DNA from: a virus
DNA: 63,361 bases
Reading direction: 5' to 3' (one strand)
IMG/VR virus record: IMGVR_UViG_3300027974_000039
Span: 1 to 63,361 of that record
Shown here in pieces: positions 96-22,851 of this stretch (position 1 is the stretch's first letter; every line of letters begins with the position of its first letter). Below the pieces are notes generated by a model that saw only the letters and a list, made by a program, of their open reading frames with translations, was not told the DNA's origin and ran no database searches. The position numbers and the translations under genes are program-made.

Positions 96-758
96 ATGAA
101 AAACATATACATGCTTAGCGATTGTCATTTGTCTAGAGCAATTGAACACTACTATCCAGAAAAATATGAAGTAAATTTTATTCCTTGGCCTAAAGCTGGT
201 CTTAAAATGCATGGATTTAATATTGAGTCATTAAAAGAAACAGATGAGTTATCTTCTGGTGTTGAAATTCAAAGGACTGTTAACCATGAGCCACAACCAT
301 TTTCAATTATTAAAGATGATGGTGTGTTAGTTATTTGGATGGGATATGTTGACATTAGAACATTCTTGTCTAGATATGAAAATGCAGATGAAACAGTAAA
401 AAACTTTATTGACGATATAAAAAAGAACTTTCCTGGTTCACAAGTTGTAATCATAGAGCCATTACCTCAGTTTACTGAGATGCTTTTAAAGCATGAAGGA
501 ATTAGTCCATATTACACACATGAGCAAAGATTAAATCAAAATAAATTGGTTTTGTCTGCACTACATAAGTATGCAAAAGAAGCGGGATTTGAAATAGTGA
601 TTACTCAGCAAGATATATTAGATGCATTGGGAGTTCCTGAGCTAACTCCATCTATGACGCATACAGATGCACCACATCCAGTAGACGGATTACATCCTGA
701 TCATATGGTCAAGATATGGAACCTATTTGCTGAAAAATTAAGTCCGTTAGCTATCTAG
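96..758 (+). CDS. SGNH/GDSL-hydrolase-like protein
   Basis: The 220-residue protein has features of the SGNH hydrolase fold. An N-terminal LSDCHLS segment sits where the GDS nucleophile block is expected, a central MGYVDIR segment resembles the block with the oxyanion residue, and DGLHPDH near residues 196-202 resembles the C-terminal DxxH block. Such enzymes remove or transfer acyl groups on glycans and lipids, so a role in surface-sugar modification is possible. It begins one base after the preceding stop and its 3' end overlaps the convergent methyltransferase by 8 bases. The motif matches are loose and no biochemical substrate can be inferred. Confidence 0.5.
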   Translation: MKNIYMLSDCHLSRAIEHYYPEKYEVNFIPWPKAGLKMHGFNIESLKETDELSSGVEIQRTVNHEPQPFSIIKDDGVLVIWMGYVDIRTFLSRYENADETVKNFIDDIKKNFPGSQVVIIEPLPQFTEMLLKHEGISPYYTHEQRLNQNKLVLSALHKYAKEAGFEIVITQQDILDALGVPELTPSMTHTDAPHPVDGLHPDHMVKIWNLFAEKLSPLAI

Positions 759-1383
759 TTATTACTAAAATACCAGCAGGCAAGGTTTGAATATCTTTAC
801 CTATTGAAGCAGCTAAATCTTGTACAGCTTTTACGGCACCAGTAGAATAGTTATCGTGTGTATCTACCATTAAAATACCACCATCTACAATTTTATAGAA
901 TAAATTTTCTAGTACATTTTTTGTAGGCTCATATGTAGAAAGGTCTACATAAAGCAAAGATATTTTTTCTACTTTATCTAGTTCTGCTAATGAATTTACA
1001 GATACATTTTCAAAAGTAGATATGTTTTTATCAAAGATTTCGCGGTTAGGCTTAAAGGTATGTTCTTTATAAAATTCGTTATCAAATTCTCCTACATTTG
1101 TTATTCCTTCAAAAGAATCAAACAGATATACGGTAGATTTTGCGTTACTTGCTATAAAGAAAGATTGTTCTCCATTGTGTACTCCACATTGAACAAAGTT
1201 ACCTTCAATTGATTTAACTTGTTTAATTGCGCTATAGAGCACATAGTATCTTTCCCATTCTGGAAATGATTTAATATCAGCTTTGCCAATTATTTCCATG
1301 GCAACTTCAGCTTGCTTGTCTACAATAGACATAAATTCTGGATCAAGTACTTTGTCAGCCCATGGCTCAATTGTATAGTTCAT
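751..1383 (-). CDS. TylF/MycF-type class I methyltransferase
   Basis: The 210-residue protein resembles the macrocin O-methyltransferase (TylF) family, S-adenosylmethionine-dependent enzymes that methylate sugar hydroxyls. The segment GNFVQCGVHNGEQSFF matches the SAM-binding motif I region, VYLFDSFEGI matches the acidic strand-2 motif, and LLYVDLSTYEPT plus GGILMVDTHDN match the metal/substrate region. An in-frame ATG lies 11 codons upstream. The internal ATG at 1383 is preferred because a TATAAT box ends 6 nt before it, as at several other genes here, and the upstream ATG would lie inside that promoter. Methylation of a sugar or of a virion glycan is the best guess. Confidence 0.75.
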   Translation of the reverse strand: MNYTIEPWADKVLDPEFMSIVDKQAEVAMEIIGKADIKSFPEWERYYVLYSAIKQVKSIEGNFVQCGVHNGEQSFFIASNAKSTVYLFDSFEGITNVGEFDNEFYKEHTFKPNREIFDKNISTFENVSVNSLAELDKVEKISLLYVDLSTYEPTKNVLENLFYKIVDGGILMVDTHDNYSTGAVKAVQDLAASIGKDIQTLPAGILVITR

Positions 1384-1389
1384 ATAACT

Positions 1390-1416
1390 ATTATACAGTA
1401 TAAAATTACTAGTCAA
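1390..1416 (-). promoter_or_regulatory. Promoter of the methyltransferase gene, leaderless type
   Basis: On the minus strand a TTGACT -35 (1411-1416) is followed after 15 nt by TATAAT (1390-1395). Only 6 nt separate the -10 from the ATG at 1383, so the transcript should begin at or next to the start codon. The 15-nt spacer is shorter than usual. Confidence 0.6.
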
Positions 1417-1892: not shown

Positions 1893-3389
1893 ATGGATAA
1901 AAAGAATATAGTTATAGTTGGTGGCGGAACCGCTGGCTGGCTATCTGCTTTATTTGCTCAGCAAAGATACCCTGATCAAAACGTGGTACTGGTAGAGAGC
2001 GAAGAGATTGGAATCTTGGGCGCTGGAGAAGGAACTGTACCACAGCTCTTAAAATTACTACAAGCACTTGGCATTAGCCTAAGAGATTTAATTGCTAACA
2101 CTAAATCAACTATAAAAAATGGTATTGTATTTACAAACTGGTCTAACGACGGCGGCAAGTACATGCACGGGTTTACCTTTGAGCAAAACATATCCCCTTT
2201 TATTAAATCAATTGAATTTAAAGACAAACACTTTCTTAACTCAAGAATATTTGCTTATGCCAACAAAATGGCGCATGAAGATCATTGCTACTATACTATG
2301 ATATCTGATCAAAACCTTGTTCCATATGGTAATGCAGATTTAAATTATGAATATTACTCACAACACGCTTTTCACTTTGATGCTAGAGAGATGGCAAAAT
2401 ACTTAAAGTCTATAGCGACAGAAAGAGGCGTGGGGCATATTGAAGGCAGAGTAATTGATTGCGATATAGAGGGCTTAAACATAAATTCAATTACCCTAGA
2501 AGACAAAACAAAGGTTCCTGTAGACTTTCTTGTAGATTGCACTGGGTTTGCTAGATACTTTATTAAAAAGATGGGTGGTAAATGGATTAGTTACTCCGAC
2601 ACCCTTCCAGCAAACTCCGCACAAGCATTCTTTTTAAAAATGGAAAACCCAGAAGAAATAGAGCCATATACAGAATCTACTGCTACCGATTTTGGATGGA
2701 CTTGGAAGATTCCTTTGCAGCACAGATACGGGTGTGGGTATGTTTATGATTCAAGACTTGTTTCTAACGAAGATGTAAAGAAAGAGATTTTAGAAAAGTA
2801 CGGAGATGTACAGTTTGTAAAGCATTTTACATTTGACCCAGGAACATTTGAAAAAATTTGGATTGGAAACTGTCTTGCTGTTGGGTTATCTGCTGGTTTT
2901 GTAGAGCCACTAGAGGCAACATCGTTACAGATGACTGCGACAACCTTAAGTAGAGTCTTTCATTCAGAAGTAGATATCTTTAACCCATTTGGCATGAAAG
3001 AAAGAATTAATGATCGTGCTTTTAAAGATTCTGAATCAGTAAAAGAATTTATATACTTACACTATATGACAAATAAAACAAACAACAGTTTTTGGAAAGA
3101 TTTTATTTTAAACAACAAAATGCCAGAGGCTTTAAAATCTGTATACGATGATTTTATAAATGTTAAACTTATCCACGACTATGATTTAATGTGGCCAGAG
3201 TATAGCTACTACATAGTTGCTTATGGCAACGGTATAATGGATCAGGAGAAACTAATAAAGTTTTCCAATGAAAACCTAGAAAGATTCTCTGATCAAATAT
3301 ATGCAAACTTTAAGTTAAAAAAAGAGCTTGCAAATAATAGTGCTAAACATTTCGACTTCTTAAAGTTTAACGGGGGATTTAATGAGTAA
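1893..3389 (+). CDS. Flavin-dependent tryptophan-halogenase-family protein
   Basis: The 498-residue protein has the hallmarks of FADH2-dependent halogenases of the PrnA/RebH type. These are an N-terminal FAD motif VGGGTAGW (residues 9-16), a TIKNGIVF segment whose K75 aligns with the catalytic Lys79 of PrnA, the WTWKIP signature of the WxWxIP family (269-274), and FVEPLEATS (336-344) matching the active-site Glu region. These enzymes install Cl, Br or I on activated aromatic rings using reduced flavin, halide and O2. Marine viral halogenases of this family are known, including one that iodinates. The gene overlaps the next small membrane gene by 8 nt. The substrate is unknown; an exposed aromatic residue of a virion protein is one possibility. 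Confidence 0.85.
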   Translation: MDKKNIVIVGGGTAGWLSALFAQQRYPDQNVVLVESEEIGILGAGEGTVPQLLKLLQALGISLRDLIANTKSTIKNGIVFTNWSNDGGKYMHGFTFEQNISPFIKSIEFKDKHFLNSRIFAYANKMAHEDHCYYTMISDQNLVPYGNADLNYEYYSQHAFHFDAREMAKYLKSIATERGVGHIEGRVIDCDIEGLNINSITLEDKTKVPVDFLVDCTGFARYFIKKMGGKWISYSDTLPANSAQAFFLKMENPEEIEPYTESTATDFGWTWKIPLQHRYGCGYVYDSRLVSNEDVKKEILEKYGDVQFVKHFTFDPGTFEKIWIGNCLAVGLSAGFVEPLEATSLQMTATTLSRVFHSEVDIFNPFGMKERINDRAFKDSESVKEFIYLHYMTNKTNNSFWKDFILNNKMPEALKSVYDDFINVKLIHDYDLMWPEYSYYIVAYGNGIMDQEKLIKFSNENLERFSDQIYANFKLKKELANNSAKHFDFLKFNGGFNE

Positions 3390-3660
3390 CATAAAGTATG
3401 TTTTGTCGCAGATGGGCAATATGTCTTATTGGAACAAGGTTAATTTTATAGAGTTTATATCCTTTATGACTAAGGTCACCATTATTGTGCCAGGTCTTCT
3501 TTTTGGGAAACAGTGGTGGTGGCTTTATATATTTGCATTAATTTCCAGCATGTCTCTTATTTGGACATCAACTAAAAAAACTTTGCCAACTATTATTATA
3601 TTTAATATAATTTGGTGCTGCTTAGCTGCTTCAGCTATCCTTAAACACTTTTTGCTTTAG
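3382..3660 (+). CDS. Small membrane protein downstream of the halogenase
   Basis: The 92-residue protein contains two or three hydrophobic segments (about residues 30-43, 45-62 and 68-91) with a WWWLYIF cluster. It starts inside the last codons of the halogenase and so is probably translated together with it. The 3' end overlaps the convergent oxygenase gene by 4 nt. No family is recognised. It could anchor the halogenase or supply a membrane function, but that is only inferred from position. Confidence 0.6.
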   Translation: MSNIKYVLSQMGNMSYWNKVNFIEFISFMTKVTIIVPGLLFGKQWWWLYIFALISSMSLIWTSTKKTLPTIIIFNIIWCCLAASAILKHFLL

Positions 3661-4505
3661 TGTTCTTTAAACTCGCCCATAAATGCATCAGAAAGAGCTT
3701 CACCTTCTAATCCAGAAGATTGATAAAGCTTAATTCTATCTTTTGTAAATTGAGGATTTTCTTTTAATGGTCTATTCCATATATTTACAAATTCTTTCAA
3801 GGAAAGAGTGTCTTTATCTTTAATTTGTTCATAATATTCTGGAGTTTTATAATTGTAAAAAGTTCCTGGATTGTCTTCTGCCTTTAAAACAAAATTTGAA
3901 AATGCATATCTTTTACCAGAGGAAACTGGCTCTACTCCATGTGCATGTGGGGAGAATGCTCCATGTATAACTAAATCTCCTCTTTCTGGTTTAATGGTTA
4001 AACGATTTTCTTCCGTTACTGCATCTCTTCTATTTCCATCTTGATCAATATTTACGTAAAATATTTCTCCGCCTGTAAAATCTCCAAAATATCCGACTAA
4101 ACCAAAATCTAAATCGCAACAAGTTTTCCATACATCTACTTGAGAAAGTCTATGACATTCTCCCTTTCCAGGAGAATCTGAATGTGTAAACATTCCTTCG
4201 TTCATTTCTGGAGTTATAATTAATACATTGCCCTGTGGATGCATTACGTATTCTGGATATAAAAGTTCGCTAGCTTTTTCCCAAAGTGGGTGCATTGATT
4301 TAAGAGATGGACTTACTTTATTTGCATACCAGCTTATAAGAGTGTCTCCATATTTATCACTCATATCATAATCTTTTAATTCATCTTCTACAGTTTTGCA
4401 TTCTTCATCAGTATAAAATCCTTTAAAAAGAAAAACTCCGCTTTGTGTTCCATAATCATCTGGGAAAAAAGAAACTTTAATACAATCTTCTCTATCATAA
4501 AACAT
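3657..4505 (-). CDS. 2-oxoglutarate/Fe(II) dioxygenase, prolyl-4-hydroxylase-like
   Basis: The 282-residue protein carries the full facial triad of the 2OG-Fe(II) superfamily: H108-x-D110 in FTHSDS, distal H189 in PHAHGV, and R199 for the 2-oxoglutarate carboxylate (SGKRYAFSNF). The family uses O2 and 2-oxoglutarate to hydroxylate side chains or small molecules. Six further paralogues occur between 16.3 and 28.0 kb, but this copy lies apart and on the opposite strand. Its ATG overlaps the stop of a tiny upstream gene by one base. It lacks the exact NDDYEGG strand of the others and has GDFTGGEIFY instead. Substrate unknown. Confidence 0.85.
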   Translation of the reverse strand: MFYDREDCIKVSFFPDDYGTQSGVFLFKGFYTDEECKTVEDELKDYDMSDKYGDTLISWYANKVSPSLKSMHPLWEKASELLYPEYVMHPQGNVLIITPEMNEGMFTHSDSPGKGECHRLSQVDVWKTCCDLDFGLVGYFGDFTGGEIFYVNIDQDGNRRDAVTEENRLTIKPERGDLVIHGAFSPHAHGVEPVSSGKRYAFSNFVLKAEDNPGTFYNYKTPEYYEQIKDKDTLSLKEFVNIWNRPLKENPQFTKDRIKLYQSSGLEGEALSDAFMGEFKEH

Positions 4506-12399: not shown

Positions 12400-15300
12400 A
12401 TGCCGCTAAACATTTTTGATGGTTCTAATTGGAACCCACTCAAAAAAATACAAATTCATGATGGTTCATCATGGAATGAATCAAAGTCGGCATTTATATG
12501 GAATGGATCTGAATGGAAATCATTACTAGATTTAAAACCAAAAAATACATCTTTACCAACATTATCTATACAAGGTAACGCATTTTTTTATTCTGCACAA
12601 GAAACAGTTATATCAACCAATGGGCAATGGGAAAATTCACCTACATCATTTGAGTATCAATGGCAAAAAGCTGCTTATCCTACATCTAATTGGTCAAATA
12701 TACTTGACAAAACATCTAGTACTTTATTTTTAAATGAAGATGAATGGGATTTAAATCAATCTTTAAAGTATGTTGGATATGCTGTTAGATGCAAAGTTAC
12801 AGCAATAAATTCTGCTGGAAAAAATTCTGAAGATGTTTACACACTTTCTAGCCCAGTAATTGCGCCAGCTCCATTAGGAGAAATTAGCGTAAATGTAGTT
12901 TCAAACGGAATTGTCGAATTTACTTGGCAAAAAGTAAAAGGCGCCAATGATTACTATATGCAATATCAAGGACCCCAAGTTCCATTTACTGAAATTATGA
13001 GCATGGTAAATAATACAGATGCTTCAAAGGGAGTATATTCTATACAAGGAACAACATGTAAATTTACTATTGATACTGGTTCAGCAGCTGGAACACTTGG
13101 AATTTTAATAAATCCAATGAATACATCAAATGCTTCTGGTATGTCATTAAGTGGATATGGTAGAAATGCATCAGTAATGGATCTAAAACCAATTAAAGCT
13201 ACAGTAACAGCAACAATGACATCGTTTAGTTGGGGCGGAAGACTAAGTTGGTCTACAAATTTAATACAACAAACTGGCTGGACAATATATAATGAAGGAC
13301 AGCTATACGCAGGATCATTCATGAATGACCCACTAGCAACGTCTTATGATATAAGTGAACTTGGTGTAGGCGGATCAAAATTTGGAGCATTTACAGTACA
13401 AATTACTGGAACAGCACCTAGATATACAGAAACTTCATGGACTTCTTCTCCATCTCTATCTATTGAATATCCAACAGTTCCATTGCCAGTTAATGAAGGT
13501 GCTCCAACAGTTTCTTTAAATGGAAGAACAGTAACTTCAACAAATGGTACATGGACAAATCAAAATTCTATCTATAATTATCTTATTGAATGGTATTCTA
13601 ATGGAGTACCAATGACGTTTGGTGTTGGACAATCAGTAGATTTTAGTACTAACACATCTTATGATAATACTCAAATATCATCTTCTGTTCAAATTTTAAC
13701 TACTGATTTAAGATTGACAGAAAAAATATATAGCAGCAATTCTGTAACAATGCTACCTTCAGCTGCACTTTGTGATACTGCAGCAAAATGTTTAACTCCA
13801 GCATGTCAAGCTTGTGTACGTACATACAACATAAATACAAATGTTGCTACTAGCGTTTGTCCATCTGGAACAATGATTCAACAAGTTTGTATAACTCCAG
13901 GAGTTTGTGACAATAGAACTACAGATGTTGGTTGTGTACCAGTAGGAACAGAATGGTATTGTACTGAATCATATAATGGCGGAGGAATTGGCAATTGTGG
14001 ATATACCTTATCTTCATTTAATAATTCTGGGTCTGGTTCTGGATATTCAAGATCATGTGTTGCTGGTGGTCCATATCCAGCATGTGGATCTACTGGTCCT
14101 GCTACTTCAGTAACTTATTATATTGGATCTTCTGGATGTGATTTTCAAAATGGCACATATTACATGCCTCCATCAGTAAGCGGTCCATTTACTAATGCAA
14201 CTATGCCTGGAGATTATGATAGCATTGGAAGTAGAACTTTTTCTAAATTTGTATATAGAGCAACATCAGCAGAAGCATTAGCAGCAGTACAACAAGCAGC
14301 TTGTACGCCAGCAACTCCACCAGCAACTCCACCAGCAACTCCACCAACAACAGTTATTTGTCAAAATGGAGTTAATTGTAATGAAGCAGCTTGTCAAACT
14401 TGTGGACCATCAAGTTATACTAGTACCAGACCATCATCTGCTTGTCCATCTGGTATAACAAACACTTATGTCTGTTATACTCCAGGCTCTTGTGACAATA
14501 TAACTACAGATACTACTTGTGTAGCACCAACAAGTATTTGGTACTGCACCGAAAGCTATAATGGTGGTGGGGTCGGCAACTGCGGATATACAACATCAGC
14601 ATTTGATAATTCTGCATCTGGATCTGGATACTCACGTTCTTGCAATACTACTGGATACATATCTTGTGGATCTACCAATCCTTCAACTCCGCCTGCTACC
14701 CCACCTTCAACTCCACCAGTCGTAGATTGTACTTCATGTTCCCCAACACAAAGTTATGATAGCACCAGACCAAACGCAGCTTGTCCTTCTGGAACAGAAA
14801 ATTATCATGTTTGTTGGACTCCAGGAAATTGTGAAAATATAATTACAGCAACTGGTTGCGTACCTGTTGCAACTCCACCAGCAACTCCACCTTCAACTCC
14901 ACCAGTCGTAGATTGTAGTTCATGTTCTCCAACACAAAGTTATTCAAGCACAAGACCAGTAGAAACTTACATCTGTCCTTCTGGAATAGAAAACACATAT
15001 GTTTGCTGGACTCCGTCAGGTTGTCCAAATATAGTTACAAGCACTGGCTGTGTTCCAGCATCCACACCACCAGCAACTCCGCCTGCTACTCCACCTGCAA
15101 CCCCACCTACTTACGATTGTAATACATGTAATAGTTATGGCGGAGCTTGTGGAACTTATGGAAATGGAACTTGGTGTATAACACCAGGATCTTGTCCAAA
15201 TATATGTCAAGGCGATCATCCAGATTATTTTGCTCCACCGTTCTTCCCACCGAGCTTCTTTGCTCCACCGTTCTTCCCACCGAGCTTCTTTGCTCCACCC

Positions 15301-15828
15301 ATGTTCTGGTTTGCTCCACCGTTCTTCCCACCGAGCTTCTTTGCTCCACCAGGATTTAAGGGCAAGTGTCTATCACCAGACTCAGTAATATTTACTAATA
15401 TTGGTTGGGTAAAAGCAAAAGACATTAAGCCTGGAGATAATATTATTACAATTAATGGAAATGATATTGACATTGAATCCGTAACTTTAAACAAAACATC
15501 TAAACCGCTCCCAACAAATGTTGAATTTTCAAATTCACAAGTTGTTTCAGTAGAAACAAAGCTTTCAACATTAATAGGATTTAATTACAGAGGAAAAGAT
15601 TACTCAATTACTCAGCCAATATTTGTAAAAACCCCAGAAGGAATTACTTATAAAAATGCTGGAGATATCAAAGTTGGAGACGCAATAATTAGCGTTGATT
15701 CTCAAGGAGAAATTTCTGAAATTATAGTAGATTCAATTCAAATTGATGATTTAGAGTCTACAGTTTATGATATTAGAACTTCACCAGAACCTTGGTTTAT
15801 TGTAAATTCAACTATAGCTATAGCTTAA
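12400..15828 (+). CDS. Giant multidomain adhesin with Cys-rich repeats, Pro/Phe repeats and C-terminal Hint domain
   Basis: The 1142-residue protein starts with short DGSxWN repeats (residues 4-45) and continues with Ig/Fn3-like domains to about 455. From 458 to about 940 it has disulfide-type repeats (patterns CPSGxxNxYVCWTPGxC and TGCVP) separated by ATPPATPP linkers. Then come FAPPFFPPSF repeats (943-985) and a Hint domain from C990 to the end. Hint block A is CLSPDSVIF, GWVKAKDIKPGD follows, and the C-terminal block is VYDIRTSPEPWFIVNS. The family normally self-cleaves or splices, but here the TxxH His and the final His-Asn are absent (SITQPIF and a terminal AIA). It is probably a receptor-binding tail component whose Hint part is a crosslinker, a crippled protease or a structural cap. 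Confidence 0.75.
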   Translation: MPLNIFDGSNWNPLKKIQIHDGSSWNESKSAFIWNGSEWKSLLDLKPKNTSLPTLSIQGNAFFYSAQETVISTNGQWENSPTSFEYQWQKAAYPTSNWSNILDKTSSTLFLNEDEWDLNQSLKYVGYAVRCKVTAINSAGKNSEDVYTLSSPVIAPAPLGEISVNVVSNGIVEFTWQKVKGANDYYMQYQGPQVPFTEIMSMVNNTDASKGVYSIQGTTCKFTIDTGSAAGTLGILINPMNTSNASGMSLSGYGRNASVMDLKPIKATVTATMTSFSWGGRLSWSTNLIQQTGWTIYNEGQLYAGSFMNDPLATSYDISELGVGGSKFGAFTVQITGTAPRYTETSWTSSPSLSIEYPTVPLPVNEGAPTVSLNGRTVTSTNGTWTNQNSIYNYLIEWYSNGVPMTFGVGQSVDFSTNTSYDNTQISSSVQILTTDLRLTEKIYSSNSVTMLPSAALCDTAAKCLTPACQACVRTYNINTNVATSVCPSGTMIQQVCITPGVCDNRTTDVGCVPVGTEWYCTESYNGGGIGNCGYTLSSFNNSGSGSGYSRSCVAGGPYPACGSTGPATSVTYYIGSSGCDFQNGTYYMPPSVSGPFTNATMPGDYDSIGSRTFSKFVYRATSAEALAAVQQAACTPATPPATPPATPPTTVICQNGVNCNEAACQTCGPSSYTSTRPSSACPSGITNTYVCYTPGSCDNITTDTTCVAPTSIWYCTESYNGGGVGNCGYTTSAFDNSASGSGYSRSCNTTGYISCGSTNPSTPPATPPSTPPVVDCTSCSPTQSYDSTRPNAACPSGTENYHVCWTPGNCENIITATGCVPVATPPATPPSTPPVVDCSSCSPTQSYSSTRPVETYICPSGIENTYVCWTPSGCPNIVTSTGCVPASTPPATPPATPPATPPTYDCNTCNSYGGACGTYGNGTWCITPGSCPNICQGDHPDYFAPPFFPPSFFAPPFFPPSFFAPPMFWFAPPFFPPSFFAPPGFKGKCLSPDSVIFTNIGWVKAKDIKPGDNIITINGNDIDIESVTLNKTSKPLPTNVEFSNSQVVSVETKLSTLIGFNYRGKDYSITQPIFVKTPEGITYKNAGDIKVGDAIISVDSQGEISEIIVDSIQIDDLESTVYDIRTSPEPWFIVNSTIAIA
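15229..15357 (+). repeat. FAPP/FFPP-coding tandem repeat
   Basis: About four copies of a roughly 30-nt unit encode FAPPFFPPSF, built from TTCTTCCCACCG (FFPP) and TTTGCTCCA (FAP) words. The array lies directly before the Hint domain. A larger relative is at 22114-22380. Confidence 0.8.
15564..15665 (+). repeat. 102-nt segment identical to one in the second Hint gene
   Basis: These 102 bases in the middle of the Hint domain are identical, base for base, to 22587-22688, while flanking Hint sequence has diverged. This indicates recent recombination or gene conversion between the two genes. Confidence 0.85.
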
Positions 15829-21525: not shown

Positions 21526-22851
21526 ATGTCAAAACAAGCAGGTAGAATGAGCCAAGGAGCTAATGACTTCTTAGCTCCGTATGCTCCAACAATTGGTACA
21601 GCAACAAATGTAGGCTCAAGTAGAGCTTTCAATAATGGACGGGCAGATGTAACTTTTACAGCTGACTCAAGAAATGCTGCAGATTCATTTACTGTTACCT
21701 CTTCTCCAGGAAACTTTCTTGGAACTGGGGCATCATCTCCAATTTCAGTTACAGGCCTTCAGTCAGGAGTTGCTTACACATTTACAGTAACCGCAACAAA
21801 TGCAGCAGGAACATCAGCTCCATCTGAAGCATCTAATTCTGTTACAGCTACAACTGTACCTCAAGATCCACAAAGTGCAACTGCAACTGCAGGAATTAAT
21901 CAAAACACTATTTCTTGGACAGCTCCAAATAATGGTGGATCAGCAATAACAAATTATTATATTGTTGGAAATGATGGAACATCTGGTAACACAGCATCTA
22001 CATCAATAGTAATTGCAGATACTGCTAATACTTCTCAATATTATAATATTTATGCAGATAACGCTAATGGTAGATCAATTGCTTCAGGTAATACAGCCAC
22101 TATTACAACTCTAGCACCGTTCTTCCCACCGTTCTTCCCACCGTTCTTCCCACCGAGCTTCTTTGCTCCACCGTTCTTCCCACCGTTCTTCCCACCGAGC
22201 TTCTTTGCTCCACCGTTCTTCCCACCGTTCTTCCCACCGAGCTTCTTTGCTCCACCGAGCTTTTTTGCTCCACCGTTCTTCCCACCGTTCTTCCCACCGA
22301 GCTTCTTTGCCCCACCAAGCTTCTTTGCTCCACCAGGATTCTGGTTTGCCCCACCAAGCTTCTTTGCTCCACCAGGATTTAAGGGCAAGTGTTTATCACC
22401 AGACTCAGTAATATTTACTGCAGATGGATGGGTACAAGCTAAAAATATTAAAGTTGGAGATGCAATATTAACTATTGACGGAAGTCATATTAATCTTGAA
22501 TCAATAACTTCAAATAAAATTTCTGAATCACTTCCAGAAAATGTTAAATTTACAGATGGTCAAGTTGTTTCTGTTACAGAAAAAACTTCAACATTAATAG
22601 GATTTAATTACAGAGGAAAAGATTACTCAATTACTCAGCCAATATTTGTAAAAACCCCAGAAGGAATTACTTATAAAAATGCTGGAGAAATTGAAATAGG
22701 AGAAATAATCCTACATGTTGATTCTGAAGGATCAGTATCAGAGGTTCCAGTAACTTCAATAGAAAAGGATGAAGCAGAATCAACTGTTTATGATGTTAGA
22801 ACATCTCCACAGCCATGGTTTATAGTTAATTCCTTTATAGCAATAGCATAA
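21526..22851 (+). CDS. Fn3 adhesin with Pro/Phe repeats and C-terminal Hint domain
   Basis: The 441-residue protein starts with a short basic N-terminus. Two fibronectin type III domains follow (about 20-112, with GLQSGVAYTFTVTATNAAG, and 115-195). A long FFPPFFPPSFFAPP array covers residues 196-286, and a Hint domain runs from C289 to the end. The Hint domain has CLSPDSVIF, GWVQAKNIKVGD, SITQPIF and VYDVRTSPQPWFIVNS; like its partner at 12400 it lacks the TxxH His and the terminal His-Asn. The shared layout of linker plus Hint suggests both adhesins are processed or attached in the same way. A strong terminator follows. Confidence 0.78.
   Translation: MSKQAGRMSQGANDFLAPYAPTIGTATNVGSSRAFNNGRADVTFTADSRNAADSFTVTSSPGNFLGTGASSPISVTGLQSGVAYTFTVTATNAAGTSAPSEASNSVTATTVPQDPQSATATAGINQNTISWTAPNNGGSAITNYYIVGNDGTSGNTASTSIVIADTANTSQYYNIYADNANGRSIASGNTATITTLAPFFPPFFPPFFPPSFFAPPFFPPFFPPSFFAPPFFPPFFPPSFFAPPSFFAPPFFPPFFPPSFFAPPSFFAPPGFWFAPPSFFAPPGFKGKCLSPDSVIFTADGWVQAKNIKVGDAILTIDGSHINLESITSNKISESLPENVKFTDGQVVSVTEKTSTLIGFNYRGKDYSITQPIFVKTPEGITYKNAGEIEIGEIILHVDSEGSVSEVPVTSIEKDEAESTVYDVRTSPQPWFIVNSFIAIA
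22114..22380 (+). repeat. Long FFPP/FAPP-coding tandem repeat
   Basis: About 265 bp of repeated TTCTTCCCACCG, GAGCTTC and TTTGCTCCA words encode an aromatic-proline chain of roughly 90 residues. Unit order varies, as expected from slippage or unequal recombination. Confidence 0.85.
22587..22688 (+). repeat. 102-nt segment identical to one in the first Hint gene
   Basis: This segment is identical to 15564-15665 and encodes the central Hint part starting STLIGFNYRGKDYSITQP. Neighbouring Hint sequence differs at many positions. Confidence 0.85.

What the first reader, a model, noticed from the sequence alone, without database searches (positions are those of the whole stretch)
1893..3660. Phage-borne flavin halogenase coupled to a small membrane protein
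The halogenase keeps the FAD motif, catalytic Lys75, WTWKIP and the active-site Glu. It overlaps a 92-residue membrane protein gene, which is not usual for soluble halogenases. Aromatic-rich FFPP linkers and Trp/Tyr-rich fibres in the same genome are possible substrates. A host metabolite or signalling indole is an alternative.
Basis: partly seen in the sequence, partly recalled or inferred. Interest (0 to 1): 0.62.

Follow-up and report, generated by a model that had tools for sequence, protein, structure and literature searches.

The report
Phage halogenase with constant membrane partner
This virus genome carries a gene for an enzyme that attaches chlorine, bromine or iodine to aromatic molecules, overlapping the gene of a tiny membrane protein; the same membrane protein, found so far only in viruses, stays next to many very different halogenases, which suggests an undescribed membrane-linked halogenation module.

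Summary
ORF 1893-3389 is an intact flavin-dependent halogenase (Pfam Trp_halogenase, 5e-104), and a 92-residue membrane-protein ORF (3382-3660, "MEM") overlaps it by 8 nt. Phage halogenases are known (cyanophages, pelagiphages, VirX1), so the enzyme alone is ordinary. The pairing is not. In IMG/VR, 52 of 60 distinct MEM proteins of this type abut a halogenase, between many different neighbour genes and in both gene orders. MEM stays up to 96% identical while its halogenases fall to 21-30% identity, so partners have been swapped. MEM has no database family and was not found in cultured phages, plasmids, or beside 80 cellular halogenases. Limits: a longer sister family (117 aa) occurs mostly without halogenases, a few 92-aa-type copies stand alone, and many halogenases lack MEM. 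Most likely MEM does a general membrane-side job for interchangeable halogenases (docking, or passage of a common small solute); this is inferred. A SemiSWEET/PnuC-like fold was hinted at but not upheld. The FFPP-linker substrate idea is not supported: 23 of 27 halogenase/MEM records lack such linkers. Verdict: known enzyme, new virus-specific membrane partner.

The parts
1893..3389 (+). Flavin-dependent halogenase (Trp_halogenase family), 498 aa; FAD motif, K75, WTWKIP, E338/E341 intact
3382..3660 (+). MEM: 92-aa membrane protein, about 3 TM helices with an N-terminal helix; 33 invariant columns in 37 relatives
3382..3389 (+). 8-nt gene overlap (ATGAGTAA), consistent with translational coupling; the commonest overlap length among relatives
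3372..3377 (+). GGGGGA, possible ribosome-binding site of MEM lying inside the halogenase C-terminal codons (GGFNE)
   Evidence: match to consensus only
3657..4505 (-). Convergent neighbour, weak 2OG-Fe(II) oxygenase match; context, not shown to belong to the pair
751..1416 (-). Upstream neighbour, TylF-like methyltransferase; context only

Best explanation
The two genes form a conserved module. The first makes a soluble FADH2-dependent halogenase that adds chloride, bromide or iodide to an aromatic molecule. The second, read from overlapping codons, makes a virus-specific inner-membrane protein (MEM) that does a general job for whatever halogenase is encoded beside it: most likely it holds the enzyme at the cytosolic membrane face, or moves a small solute common to all these reactions (halide, flavin-related compound, aromatic substrate or product). 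Shown: sequence families, overlap, recurrence, partner swapping, purifying selection. Inferred: co-translation, functional cooperation, topology, and the membrane role.
For: 52 of 60 distinct MEM sequences are adjacent to a halogenase, 3 more nearby; typical overlaps are 8 or 4 nt. Pairs sit between about 19 left and 23 right neighbour families and in both gene orders (counted by cluster). MEM 96/89/89% identical sits beside halogenases only 27/26/29% identical. MEM-adjacent halogenases fall in several separated tree clades, 16 changes of state. 70 of 80 MEM records hold a PF04820 halogenase. Charged and polar residues inside or next to the predicted helices are invariant even with the sister family (N21, E24, K31, S56, K66, T70, N75), which a mere anchor would hardly need. 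Because the halogenases differ so much while MEM does not, MEM's job is probably not recognition of one substrate (inference).
Against: A sister family of MEM (about 117 aa) is common without halogenases nearby (9 of 80), and 121-kb and 212-kb records carry it with no halogenase. Four distinct MEM sequences of the 92-aa type have no adjacent halogenase, two of them in synteny with loci that do (L038 vs L069, L078 vs L080). About two thirds of halogenase-first viral loci lack MEM within the DNA held, so the enzyme can do without it. No physical interaction could be tested.
Confidence: 0.5

Rival explanations
1. MEM is an independent phage membrane protein with its own role (for example acting on a conserved host membrane complex), and halogenases merely insert repeatedly beside it because it marks a recombination hot spot.
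For: Sister family mostly halogenase-free; syntenic loci with MEM but no halogenase; MEM is more conserved than the halogenase; different synonymous divergence of the two genes in one close pair (dS 0.05 vs 0.36) suggests recombination between them.
Against: A hot spot should collect other cargo too, yet the gene beside the 92-aa type is nearly always a halogenase (52 of 60), in both orders and among many contexts, usually with a short coding overlap.
Confidence: 0.27
2. MEM is a SemiSWEET/PnuC-like mini-transporter (3 TM, dimerising) that imports substrate or halide, or exports product, for the halogenase.
For: First AF2 model: top structural matches are SemiSWEET, mitochondrial pyruvate carrier and SWEET (4rng_C Z 8.3, 1.9 A over 75 residues). 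Second model: best viral match is a 77-aa phage PnuC, probability 0.80 but E-value 0.69, and SemiSWEET parts at 1.3-1.7 A over 49-50 residues. Conserved charged and polar residues in the helices.
Against: Both models have modest confidence (pLDDT 70 and 74, pTM 0.51); the second model ranks unrelated helical proteins higher; profile comparison with SemiSWEET fails (probability 0.3%); no Pfam match.
Confidence: 0.2
3. The halogenase modifies virion proteins (fibres or linkers).
For: Aromatic linkers exist in this genome; in DSL-LC01 the halogenase lies downstream of collagen-like genes, in HTVC008M between terminase genes, in L036 beside fibre-like genes (read from sequence, not by profile).
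Against: FFPP linkers are absent from 23 of 27 halogenase/MEM records; a membrane partner fits cytosolic virion assembly poorly; in the window the neighbours are a methyltransferase and an oxygenase.
Confidence: 0.12
4. MEM is itself the substrate: the halogenase halogenates its conserved Trp/Tyr residues.
For: W46 and W78 are invariant, W47 and Y49 nearly so.
Against: The sister family keeps the same aromatic residues without a halogenase; the residues lie at or in the membrane.
Confidence: 0.05

Closest known systems
Flavin-dependent tryptophan halogenases (PrnA, PyrH, RebH; PF04820)
   Same: Whole-length profile match, FAD motif, WxWxIP, catalytic Lys and Glu
   Different: Only distant sequence similarity to the characterised enzymes; C-terminal region varies; none of 80 cellular halogenase loci examined has MEM
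Phage halogenases: VirX1 (cyanophage Syn10, PDB 6qgm), P-SSM2, pelagiphage HTVC008M
   Same: Phage-borne halogenases of the same family; HTVC008M 39% identical, VirX1 8.3e-49
   Different: No MEM found in the phage collection; HTVC008M and P-SSM2 loci inspected directly
Actinomycetia phage DSL-LC01 halogenase (OQ999401; PMC10611076)
   Same: Freshwater actinophage with halogenase and WhiB
   Different: Halogenase overlaps a glycosyltransferase gene instead of MEM
SemiSWEET / PnuC / MPC triple-helix-bundle carriers
   Different: No sequence-profile relation to SemiSWEET; match depends on the model

Membership tests
Flavin-dependent halogenase (PF04820) | Full-length family profile match | tested here: met
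   5.4e-104 over residues 5-452
Flavin-dependent halogenase (PF04820) | GxGxxG FAD motif, WxWxIP motif, catalytic Lys and Glu | tested here: met
   G10 G12 G15, WTWKIP 269-274, K75, E341; K75 in all 100 relatives scored
Flavin-dependent halogenase (PF04820) | Halogenation with FADH2, oxygen and halide | not testable with these tools
   needs an enzyme assay
Flavin-dependent halogenase (PF04820) | Partner flavin reductase | not tested
   host unknown; none sought in the window
VirX1-type phage halogenase | Iodide preference and broad substrate scope | not testable with these tools
   biochemical property (PMC8407142)
SemiSWEET (MtN3/saliva) | Family sequence profile | tested here: not met
   hhalign probability 0.3% against three SemiSWEET sequences; no Pfam match
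SemiSWEET (MtN3/saliva) | 3-TM triple helix bundle fold | tested here: inconclusive
   model-dependent matches
PnuC | 3-TM repeat fold | tested here: inconclusive
   77-aa phage PnuC best match in BFVD, E 0.69

The most novel reading that the evidence does not exclude
Phages, largely freshwater ones, share a virus-only membrane module: one nearly constant 3-TM protein that serves interchangeable halogenases, giving membrane-associated halogenation (docking plus passage of halide, substrate or product) of host or virion molecules during infection.
Probability: 0.4. Interest if true: 0.8.

Novelty: new variant of a known kind. Interest (0 to 1): 0.62.

Why it matters
Phage halogenases are common but their biological role is unknown. 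A constant membrane partner points to where the reaction may happen and gives a simple handle for testing: with or without MEM, and swapped pairs. It also reveals a widespread, uncatalogued family of phage membrane proteins with a well-conserved core.

Tried and rejected
MEM as a known family: no useful match in Pfam, NCBIfam, PHROGs, PADLOC or PDB sequences. MEM in cells: none found by a two-pattern scan of 84,980 genomes or a profile search of 398 genomes of one phylum; both are limited, and no positive control was available. SemiSWEET membership: not met by profile. FFPP linkers as a general substrate: rejected. A halogenase C-terminal tail specific for MEM: among the tails read, GGFNE endings occur only with MEM, but MEM-less relatives end in similar GGLND/GGLQQ/GGYSQ tails, so no clear docking motif. 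Strict dependence of MEM on a halogenase across genomes: rejected for the long sister family. One common alternative membrane partner in MEM-less halogenase loci: not found, apart from a 48-53 aa one-TM protein in one phage group. Holin or defence role for MEM: no evidence found. Structures not listed by the fold searches are not taken as excluded.

Full report
What is there. The window is a 63,361-base virus record of IMG/VR, 36% G+C, with phage structural genes (portal, maturation protease, tail fibres) and a ribonucleotide reductase whose nearest DNA relatives in the phage collection are Streptomyces phages. Many related loci carry a WhiB-like gene (cluster 7; recognised from its motif, not by a profile search), a marker of actinophages (PMC10202952). 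The window itself gave no WhiB motif hit, so an actinobacterial host for the window is an inference. ORF 1893-3389 is a complete flavin-dependent halogenase. ORF 3382-3660 encodes a 92-residue membrane protein, here MEM, overlapping it by 8 nt.

The enzyme. Motifs and catalytic residues are intact. The closest cultured-phage relative is the pelagiphage HTVC008M halogenase, 39% identical; cyanophages have many. The cellular relatives returned by the genome scan reach 37% identity (best-segment values) and are mostly proteobacterial. A phage halogenase, VirX1 of cyanophage Syn10, has been characterised and prefers iodide (PMC8407142). The enzyme alone is therefore a new member of a known kind.

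The partner. A scan of viral contigs with MEM gave 363 relatives. Of the 80 best records, 70 contain a halogenase anywhere in the record; of the ten that do not, six have MEM at a contig edge (L012, L018, L037, L067, L077, L085). After merging near-identical MEMs, 60 distinct sequences remain, counting also those found in the halogenase-first scan: 52 lie within 150 nt of a halogenase, 3 nearby, 1 at a contig edge, 4 without; one of the four (L024) has a halogenase about 10 kb away. Overlaps of 8 nt (38 loci) and 4 nt (22 loci) dominate when the halogenase is upstream; MEM can also be upstream of, or converge on, the halogenase (these locus counts include near-duplicates). Forty-one dereplicated pairs have about 19 different left and 23 different right neighbour families (counted by cluster; one pair, L127, carries the long MEM type), so the pair is not just a relic of one gene order.

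Partner swapping. Among 40 pairs, MEM identity is 57-96% and halogenase identity 21-84%, with weak correlation (rho 0.23). Examples: L079/L058 MEM 96%, halogenase 27%; L064/L053 89%, 26%; L049/L048 89%, 29%. On a tree of 107 halogenases, MEM-adjacent ones appear in several separated clades, with 16 changes of state (quick tree, SH-aLRT only, and the count pools adjacent with nearby MEM and the long MEM type). Simple joint inheritance of one pair does not explain this; either MEM or halogenase has been exchanged repeatedly while the pairing was kept.

Limits of the coupling. The reverse scan found MEM within the held flanks of 28 of 80 halogenase loci; marine and several other viruses have halogenases without MEM, often beside 2OG-Fe(II) oxygenases. 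A longer MEM type (about 117 aa, extra N-terminal helix) shares 18 invariant residues with the short type but is mostly not near halogenases (9 of 80). Among 24 records chosen by a DNA polymerase, 8 carry MEM of the long type and only 1 a halogenase. Two syntenic comparisons show MEM present with and without the halogenase (L069 vs L038, L080 vs L078). Hence MEM's basic function need not be halogenation.

What MEM looks like. It has no database family and was not found in plasmids, the phage collection, 398 genomes of one phylum or beside 80 cellular halogenases (the genome searches lack a positive control). The positive-inside pattern suggests a cytosolic N terminus, three TM helices and a cytosolic loop with K66 (inference). 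N21, E24, K31, S56, K66, T70 and N75 are invariant in 48 diverse sequences. Two AlphaFold2 models agree on secondary structure (pLDDT 69.7 and 73.6, pTM 0.51). The first resembles SemiSWEET and pyruvate carriers; the second does so only in part and matches other helical proteins more highly, with a phage PnuC-annotated protein as best viral match at E 0.69. A profile comparison with three SemiSWEET sequences fails. The transporter-fold idea is kept as a rival, not as the verdict.

Mechanism. The most likely reading is a module in which MEM does something common to all its halogenases at the membrane. Because the halogenases differ strongly, above all in their C-terminal regions, a service independent of one particular substrate fits best: docking, or passage of a common solute. 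Selection acts on both genes (dN/dS 0.03-0.28; several dS values saturated). Steps shown: gene families, overlap, recurrence, swapping, conservation. Steps inferred: translational coupling, topology, cooperation, and the kind of service.

FFPP linkers are real in the window (11 matches, none expected), but 23 of 27 halogenase/MEM records lack them (the set includes four records with the long MEM type), so they are not the general target.

Verdict. The halogenase is ordinary; the virus-specific, nearly constant membrane partner of interchangeable halogenases is, to my knowledge and in the papers searched (an open-access library only), undescribed.

Noticed in passing
L153, L154, L155 (also L131, L140, L145): Viral contigs with three to five halogenase genes within about 13 kb, in L131 and L153-L155 interleaved with several 2OG-Fe(II) oxygenase-like genes, and no MEM.
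   Followed up: partly
L052:3548-4366, L036:4000-4740, L047, L058, L104:5246-5995: Proteins of about 220-270 aa of unknown function (PHROG 7084 / 17480) recur within two genes of viral halogenases, with and without MEM; relatives occur in haloarchaeal tailed viruses, in one case near fibre and adhesin genes.
   Followed up: partly
L166-L245: A 117-aa sister family of MEM with an extra N-terminal TM helix is widespread in viral contigs, highly conserved, in many gene contexts, without database match.
   Followed up: partly
window 15241-15347 and 22120-22313: Phe/Pro-rich FFPP/FFAPP repeat linkers in two proteins, repeated only in the window and its closest relative among 27 records checked; function unknown.
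   Followed up: partly
window 1893-3660 versus L002: Synonymous divergence from the closest relative is 0.05 in the halogenase but 0.36 in MEM, which may mark a recombination breakpoint between the two genes.
   Followed up: no
L104:5992-8515: Overlapping or abutting three-gene arrangement: halogenase, a gene of the 2OG oxygenase cluster, MEM.
   Followed up: no
L093, L097, L099, L100, L101: In one phage group the slot after the halogenase holds a 48-53 aa one-TM protein instead of MEM.
   Followed up: no
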